A stretch of 64,000 bases of DNA from Arthrobacter sp. (GTDB taxonomy: Bacteria > Actinomycetota > Actinomycetes > Actinomycetales > Micrococcaceae): the NCBI GenBank assembly GCA_023264815.1, contig JAHFUZ010000011.1, forward strand, positions 52,362-116,361. Reading direction: 5' to 3'. The notes beneath the pieces are model-generated. The model was not told the origin of the DNA. It ran no database searches and was given only the letters and a program-made list of their open reading frames with translations. The position numbers and the translations under genes are program-made. Positions 39,868-39,997 of this stretch are shown here, one piece after another. Each line of letters starts with the position of its first letter. The stretch's first letter is position 1.

Positions 39868-39884
39868 TTCTACGATCCGTAGAA
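39868..39884. promoter_or_regulatory. operator dyad 1, candidate BlaI-family site
   Basis: TTCTAC-GATCC-GTAGAA, perfect 6-bp arms. Confidence 0.75.
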
Positions 39885-39891
39885 CAATGAT

Positions 39892-39908
39892 TTCTACCGA
39901 GTGTAGAA
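39892..39908. promoter_or_regulatory. operator dyad 2, candidate BlaI-family site, overlapping the predicted cydA -10
   Basis: TTCTAC-CGAGT-GTAGAA, perfect 6-bp arms. Confidence 0.75.
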
Positions 39909-39929
39909 CAATGCCGCTTGCACTGTAAA
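39900..39929 (-). promoter_or_regulatory. predicted cydA promoter
   Basis: -35 TTTACA (39924-39929), 18-bp spacer, -10 TACACT (39900-39905). Confidence 0.6.
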
Positions 39930-39980
39930 CCAAGAGTTCCACGTCACATGGGCACCCACAAGGCCGCGCCACGCCGGGAG

Positions 39981-39997
39981 TTCTACCGCATGTAGAA
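39981..39997. promoter_or_regulatory. operator dyad 3, candidate BlaI-family site
   Basis: TTCTAC-CGCAT-GTAGAA, perfect 6-bp arms. Confidence 0.75.

What the first reader, a model, noticed from the sequence alone, without database searches (positions are those of the whole stretch)
39868..39997. Three matching 17-bp dyads suggest a BlaI/M56 proteolytic switch controls cytochrome bd (cydAB-cydDC)
Seen: TTCTAC-N5-GTAGAA occurs three times (39868-39884, 39892-39908, 39981-39997) in the gap between divergent cydA and a BlaI-type repressor followed by an M56 protease. On the minus strand, TTTACA-18bp-TACACT forms a credible cydA promoter whose -10 lies inside dyad 2, with dyad 1 just downstream of the expected start site. 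Dyad 3 sits on the blaI side, which fits autoregulation. Known: BlaI/MecI repressors bind short GTAG/CTAC-type dyads and are inactivated after cleavage triggered by BlaR1-type M56 proteases, classically in beta-lactam resistance. Inference: here the pair would control a respiratory oxidase and its heme/thiol exporter rather than a beta-lactamase. That would be a redox- or envelope-stress-responsive switch.
Basis: partly seen in the sequence, partly recalled or inferred. Interest (0 to 1): 0.85.

Follow-up and report, generated by a model that had tools for sequence, protein, structure and literature searches.

The report
BlaI-type repressor controlling heme and respiration
In soil bacteria of the Arthrobacter group, a repressor and protease pair related to penicillin-resistance switches appears to control not only the backup oxygen-using enzyme next to it but also heme supply, cytochrome assembly and nitric-oxide defence genes around the genome, through one strictly conserved 17-letter DNA sign.

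Summary
All three TTCTAC-N5-GTAGAA dyads are exact. The genome holds nine exact copies against zero for the reversed control. The other six lie before hemQ-hemH, the cytochrome c maturation operon, a second resB, flavohemoglobin, a PNPOx-like gene and a small unknown membrane protein. In nine congeners all 39 non-cyd sites examined fall before five of these same targets. In the cydA-blaI gap all 36 arm bases are invariant in 45 loci, against 50% elsewhere. All 80 named loci carry 1-3 exact dyads; the six lacking cyd keep only one, on the blaI side. Twenty family genomes without this BlaI have chance-level counts. Operator and BlaI recognition helix change together. In mycobacterial relatives the changed dyad lies before cydA and the ATP-synthase operon. 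The protease matches S. aureus BlaR1 weakly in a medium-confidence model and lacks the beta-lactam sensor. BlaI regulation of cyd is well supported, but the cyd-only view is too narrow: this is a heme/respiration regulon. Protease action and signal are inferred. New variant of a known kind.

The parts
39868..39884 (.). Dyad 1, TTCTACGATCCGTAGAA, BlaI operator just downstream of the predicted cydA start site
   Evidence: Exact; arms 100% conserved in 45 loci; starts 23-26 bp from dyad 2 in 72 of 74 loci
39892..39908 (.). Dyad 2, TTCTACCGAGTGTAGAA, BlaI operator over the cydA -10 element
   Evidence: Exact; arms 100%, spacer AGT 98-100% conserved where the -10 overlaps
39981..39997 (.). Dyad 3, TTCTACCGCATGTAGAA, blaI-side operator (autoregulation)
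   Evidence: Exact; arms 100% conserved; a single blaI-side dyad is what remains in the six named loci and in family genomes lacking adjacent cyd
39900..39905 (-). cydA -10 element TACACT
   Evidence: Identical in 53 of 72 loci
39924..39929 (-). cydA -35-like element TTTACA, 18 bp from the -10
   Evidence: Score of at least 4 of 6 in 33 of 72 loci, 11% at random positions
40100..40486 (+). blaI, winged-helix repressor, 128 aa, no cysteine
   Evidence: PF03965 73.3 bits against a cut-off of 22.6; best solved relative PDB 2g9w
40493..41479 (+). Membrane metalloprotease, BlaR1 membrane/protease part without sensor domain, 328 aa
   Evidence: HExxH H182/E183/H186 plus E223 and D227 invariant; best fold matches are BlaR1 chains, on a medium-confidence model
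38238..39839 (-). cydA, cytochrome bd subunit I
   Evidence: PF01654 499.9 bits
37167..38216 (-). cydB, cytochrome bd subunit II
   Evidence: TIGR00203 278.9 bits against a cut-off of 117.3
33585..37160 (-). Fused CydD-CydC ABC exporter, 1191 aa
   Evidence: TIGR02857 675 and TIGR02868 612 bits, both above cut-off

Best explanation
BlaI dimers bind the 17-bp dyad TTCTAC-N5-GTAGAA. Two dyads cover the cydA -10 and early transcribed region and block cydAB-cydDC; a third lets BlaI limit its own operon. The same dyad, just upstream of start codons elsewhere, puts heme synthesis (hemQ-hemH and the genes after them), cytochrome c maturation (resA/ccdA/resB/ccsB operon), flavohemoglobin and two genes of unknown role under the same repressor. 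The co-transcribed membrane protease, BlaR1 without its penicillin sensor, is proposed to inactivate BlaI when respiratory or heme capacity falls short (damaged or blocked oxidase, NO, heme shortage), so the cell raises heme supply, cytochrome assembly and the bd oxidase together. Strongly supported by comparison: operator, regulon, BlaI as its reader, autoregulation geometry. Inferred: repression (rather than activation), cleavage of BlaI by the protease, and the signal.
For: Nine exact dyads in the genome, reversed control 0; 25 same-genus genomes hold 189 against 32 control. All 39 non-cyd sites examined in nine congeners precede hemQ, hmp, the ccs operon, PNPOx or the small membrane gene. 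In other genera exact sites precede hemA/hemE, cox2, ctaB-like UbiA, SURF1, a diheme cytochrome c, CopC and again hemQ, hmp and ccs genes. Arms invariant in 45 loci, rest 50%; 80 of 80 named loci. BlaI-less relatives at chance level. Helix AVTTVLTVL goes with TTCTAC, AYTTVMTVL with TACKAC. In mycobacterial relatives (BlaI 92% identical to 2g9w) TACKAC dyads lie before cydA (two genomes) and by an ATP-synthase I gene (three genomes), agreeing with the reported M. tuberculosis target Rv1303-atp (PMC12565901). Rv1845c blaR was called essential only with heme or hemoglobin as iron source (PMC7058343).
Against: No binding, expression or cleavage data exist here. The protease scores below the Pfam M56 cut-off (23.3 against 31) and above the M48 one. 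The residue before the aligned scissile Phe is R/Q, not the Asn of MecI. Some exact sites have no clear heme link (isocitrate lyase, sucC-like, universal stress protein, two sites in L087). The mycobacterial pattern counts are only weakly above control (5-7 against 1-5).
Confidence: 0.72

Rival explanations
1. BlaI represses the regulon as described, but the protease is not the switch; BlaI is released by another signal, by its own level, or by a general protease.
For: The protease lacks a sensor domain and the aligned cleavage position has R/Q instead of Asn. No cleavage data exist.
Against: blaI and the protease are neighbours in every family locus checked and in most distant loci; the Phe after the aligned MecI scissile position is invariant in 23 BlaI proteins; catalytic residues are invariant. 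BlaI has no cysteine for redox or metal sensing of its own.
Confidence: 0.2
2. A beta-lactam or cell-envelope stress switch, with respiration as a downstream adjustment, as in the classical BlaI/BlaR1 systems.
For: Family relationship to BlaI/BlaR1. In M. tuberculosis beta-lactam treatment raises blaI-blaR and cydAB transcripts (PMC5473688).
Against: No penicillin-binding sensor domain; none of the nine exact sites lies by a beta-lactamase or PBP gene; targets are heme and cytochrome genes. Mycobacterial BlaR also lacks the sensor (PMC5473688).
Confidence: 0.06
3. The dyads are read by a different regulator, for example the Rrf2/NsrR-like protein next to hmp.
For: An Rrf2 gene adjoins the hmp site in this and related genomes.
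Against: Dyads always flank blaI, are lost where BlaI is lost, remain at blaI when cyd is gone, and change together with the BlaI recognition helix.
Confidence: 0.02

Closest known systems
M. tuberculosis BlaI (Rv1846c) / BlaR (Rv1845c)
   Same: BlaI fold (PDB 2g9w is the best solved match; that it is Rv1846c is from memory), sensor-less BlaR protease, reported targets ATP synthase and, by one paper, cytochrome bd; related dyad TACKAC-N5-GTMGTA in mycobacterial relatives.
   Different: There known mainly as the regulator of beta-lactamase BlaC; blaI is not next to cyd in the relatives seen here; operator arms and recognition helix differ; no heme or cytochrome c regulon described in the papers found.
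S. aureus BlaI-BlaR1 / MecI-MecR1
   Same: Repressor family, neighbouring membrane zinc metalloprotease, operators over target and own promoter, conserved Phe at the aligned cleavage position.
   Different: No penicillin sensor domain; targets are heme and respiratory genes, not beta-lactamase or PBP2a; different operator sequence (from memory).
HrrSA of Corynebacterium glutamicum and Rex of Streptomyces
   Same: Control cytochrome bd and heme or respiratory genes in Actinobacteria (PMC7337898, PMC5355995, abstracts).
   Different: Unrelated protein families (two-component system, NADH-sensing Rex); no Rex-like site in the cyd-blaI gap.
CopY copper repressors
   Same: Same Pfam family PF03965.
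   Different: 27 bits against a cut-off of 122 for the CopY model and no cysteine for the metal-binding motif.

Membership tests
BlaI/MecI repressor family (PF03965) | Winged-helix penicillinase-repressor domain above the curated cut-off | tested here: met
   73.3 bits against 22.6; profile matches MecI and BlaI structures 1sd6, 1okr, 1sd4
BlaI/MecI repressor family (PF03965) | Binds short dyads at its own and target promoters | tested here: inconclusive
   Strong comparative evidence; binding itself not testable here
BlaI/MecI repressor family (PF03965) | Inactivated by cleavage at Asn-Phe by a partner protease | tested here: inconclusive
   Phe109 invariant at the aligned position, preceding residue R/Q; cleavage not testable
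BlaR1/MecR1 (M56) | HExxH metalloprotease between transmembrane helices | tested here: met
   H182/E183/H186, E223, D227 invariant; helices at 2-25, 33-57, 89-120 and 300-327 in the model
BlaR1/MecR1 (M56) | Pfam M56 above cut-off | tested here: not met
   23.3 bits against 31; M48 passes with 39.3 against 20.3
BlaR1/MecR1 (M56) | BlaR1 fold | tested here: inconclusive
   Best matches are BlaR1 chains (8exq, E 1.3e-3, prob 1.00) but TM-score is 0.31 and model pLDDT 65
BlaR1/MecR1 (M56) | Extracellular penicillin-binding sensor domain | tested here: not met
   Protein ends after the fourth membrane helix at 328 aa; no such domain in Pfam
CopY/TcrY | CopY model and cysteine metal motif | tested here: not met
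   27.4 bits against 121.95; the sequence contains no Cys
Beta-lactam resistance operon | Beta-lactamase or PBP2a gene under the operator | tested here: not met
   None beside the nine exact sites

The most novel reading that the evidence does not exclude
The BlaI/BlaR-type pair of Actinobacteria is at root a guard of heme and respiratory-chain capacity, working through cytochrome bd, ATP synthase, heme and cytochrome c assembly, and its beta-lactamase role in mycobacteria is a later addition. The sensor-less protease would itself read the membrane's respiratory or heme state, perhaps through the invariant Cys152 (AYCLPG) about 30 residues before its zinc-binding motif.
Probability: 0.35. Interest if true: 0.85.

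Novelty: new variant of a known kind. Interest (0 to 1): 0.72.

Why it matters
It gives a concrete, testable answer to who coordinates heme supply, cytochrome assembly and the bd oxidase in a large group of soil Actinobacteria. It shows a repressor family known for antibiotic resistance wired to respiration. It also offers an explanation for why M. tuberculosis BlaI/BlaR touch ATP synthase, cytochrome bd and heme use: the same ancient operator logic.

Tried and rejected
Rex control of cyd: no Rex-like site in the gap. Dyads by chance: rejected. A cyd-only switch: rejected. Another reader of the dyads such as Rrf2: unlikely. Pfam and NCBIfam gave no confident name for the small membrane protein target. 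The protease model is only medium confidence (pLDDT 65), so its fold match is a hint. No paper on BlaI control of heme or cytochromes in Arthrobacter relatives was found; the library lacks most subscription papers, including Sala et al. 2009 itself.

Full report
Check of the observation. The three dyads are exact at the stated places, in the 260-bp gap between cydA (GTG start at 39839, minus strand) and blaI (ATG at 40100). Domain searches confirm a BlaI-type repressor, a membrane metalloprotease, CydA, CydB and a CydD-CydC fusion.

The dyad is a genome-wide sign. The whole genome (4.18 Mb) has nine exact copies and the reversed control has none. The six beyond cyd lie before a Pyridox_ox_2 protein (L001), resB with a divergent thioredoxin-like gene (L005), flavohemoglobin beside an Rrf2 regulator (L006), a small membrane protein (L007), the phosphatase-resA-ccdA-resB-ccsB operon of cytochrome c maturation (L008, L316) and hemQ-hemH, followed by hemC and hemB (L009, L317). 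No beta-lactamase gene is among them.

The regulon is conserved. All 25 same-genus genomes have 6-9 exact sites, 189 in total against 32 in the reversed control. From nine of them I took 39 non-cyd sites; each lies before hemQ (9), the ccs operon (9), the small membrane gene (9), hmp (8) or PNPOx (4). The spacer letters vary while the arms do not. Two further sites in a fragmented tenth genome (L087) have no match to these targets. In other genera of the family exact sites lie before hemA/hemE, cytochrome oxidase subunit II, a UbiA (heme O synthase-like) gene, SURF1, ABC transporters, a diheme cytochrome c and CopC, besides hemQ, ccs, hmp and PNPOx. One genome without cyd beside blaI has 15 exact sites and no control match.

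The cyd-blaI gap. Across 45 loci chosen by BlaI similarity, not by the motif, all 36 arm positions are identical to the window while the rest of the gap averages 50%. Among 80 named loci (Arthrobacter, Pseudarthrobacter, Paenarthrobacter, Sinomonas and others; closest Pseudarthrobacter sulfonivorans, 98% BlaI) every one has at least one exact dyad; 56 have three and 17 two; the six without a detected adjacent cydA have exactly one, on the blaI side. Forty loci chosen from across the family show the same picture. The -10 TACACT lies in dyad 2 and explains its conserved spacer.

Twenty family genomes without a detected BlaI hold two exact dyads in all, control three, while congeners with BlaI have one at blaI in most cases. 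The synteny cydA-gap-blaI-protease extends to other families of the order. Two keep TTCTAC-type dyads; two others have TACKAC-type arms, together with a change of the recognition helix from AVTTVLTVL to AYTTVMTVL. In mycobacterial relatives (BlaI 92% identical to the sequence of PDB 2g9w) blaI is not beside cyd, yet TACKAC dyads occur at blaI, 28-40 bp before cydA in two of three genomes, and by an ATP-synthase I gene in all three. Counts there are only slightly above control, so the meaningful part is where they fall.

Links to published work. Overexpressed BlaI represses Rv1303 of the ATP synthase operon (PMC12565901). A 2017 eLife paper states, citing Sala et al. 2009, that BlaI binds cytochrome bd and ATP synthase promoters and that mycobacterial BlaR lacks the beta-lactam sensor (PMC5473688). 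A TnSeq study found rv1845c (blaR) essential only with heme or hemoglobin as iron source (PMC7058343). I found no description of a heme/cytochrome BlaI regulon in Arthrobacter relatives, within an open-access library only.

Mechanism. Dyad positions over the -10 and just downstream fit repression; dyad 3 fits autoregulation. The protease has invariant HExxH and acidic residues, a four-helix layout that ends where the BlaR1 sensor would begin, and BlaR1 as its best structural match, on a medium-confidence model. The Phe following the MecI scissile bond (position from memory) is aligned and invariant. Cleavage and signal remain inference. The target list points to respiratory or heme insufficiency rather than cell-wall stress. 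An invariant Cys152 in AYCLPG, about 30 residues before the zinc motif and seen in nearly all family proteases examined, is a candidate sensing residue, no more.

Verdict. Operator, regulon and BlaI as its reader: about 0.9 likely. Protease as switch: about 0.65. Respiratory/heme signal: about 0.5. A new variant of a known kind, with the main surprise being the breadth and depth of the regulon.

Noticed in passing
L007:1052-1600 (-), L318, L048, L281, L299: A small membrane protein of about 115-125 aa with no confident Pfam or NCBIfam hit is among the most constant targets of the dyad across the family; a candidate new heme or respiration protein.
   Followed up: partly
L001:1055-1498 (-): A Pyridox_ox_2 (split beta-barrel) protein has the dyad directly at its start in several genomes; role unknown, possibly flavin or heme binding.
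   Followed up: partly
window 30535-45675: blaI-protease lies between topoisomerase/gyrase-like A and B subunit genes with rpoD beyond; in some relatives cyd is missing from this spot and blaI-protease stays beside the topoisomerase gene.
   Followed up: partly
window 33585-37160 (-): CydD and CydC are fused into one 1191-aa frame.
   Followed up: no
window 55097-55113: A one-mismatch dyad TACTACGTGGCGTAGAA elsewhere in the window; context not examined.
   Followed up: no
L087:1328 and 7523 (G012:C102): Two exact dyads in one congener that match none of the usual targets; genes there not identified.
   Followed up: partly
L315 (G000:C12): The window's genome has a second resB/ccsB pair with its own dyad, next to a thioredoxin-like gene and further on an ArsR-like gene and a large membrane protein; possibly an acquired metal-resistance region.
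   Followed up: no
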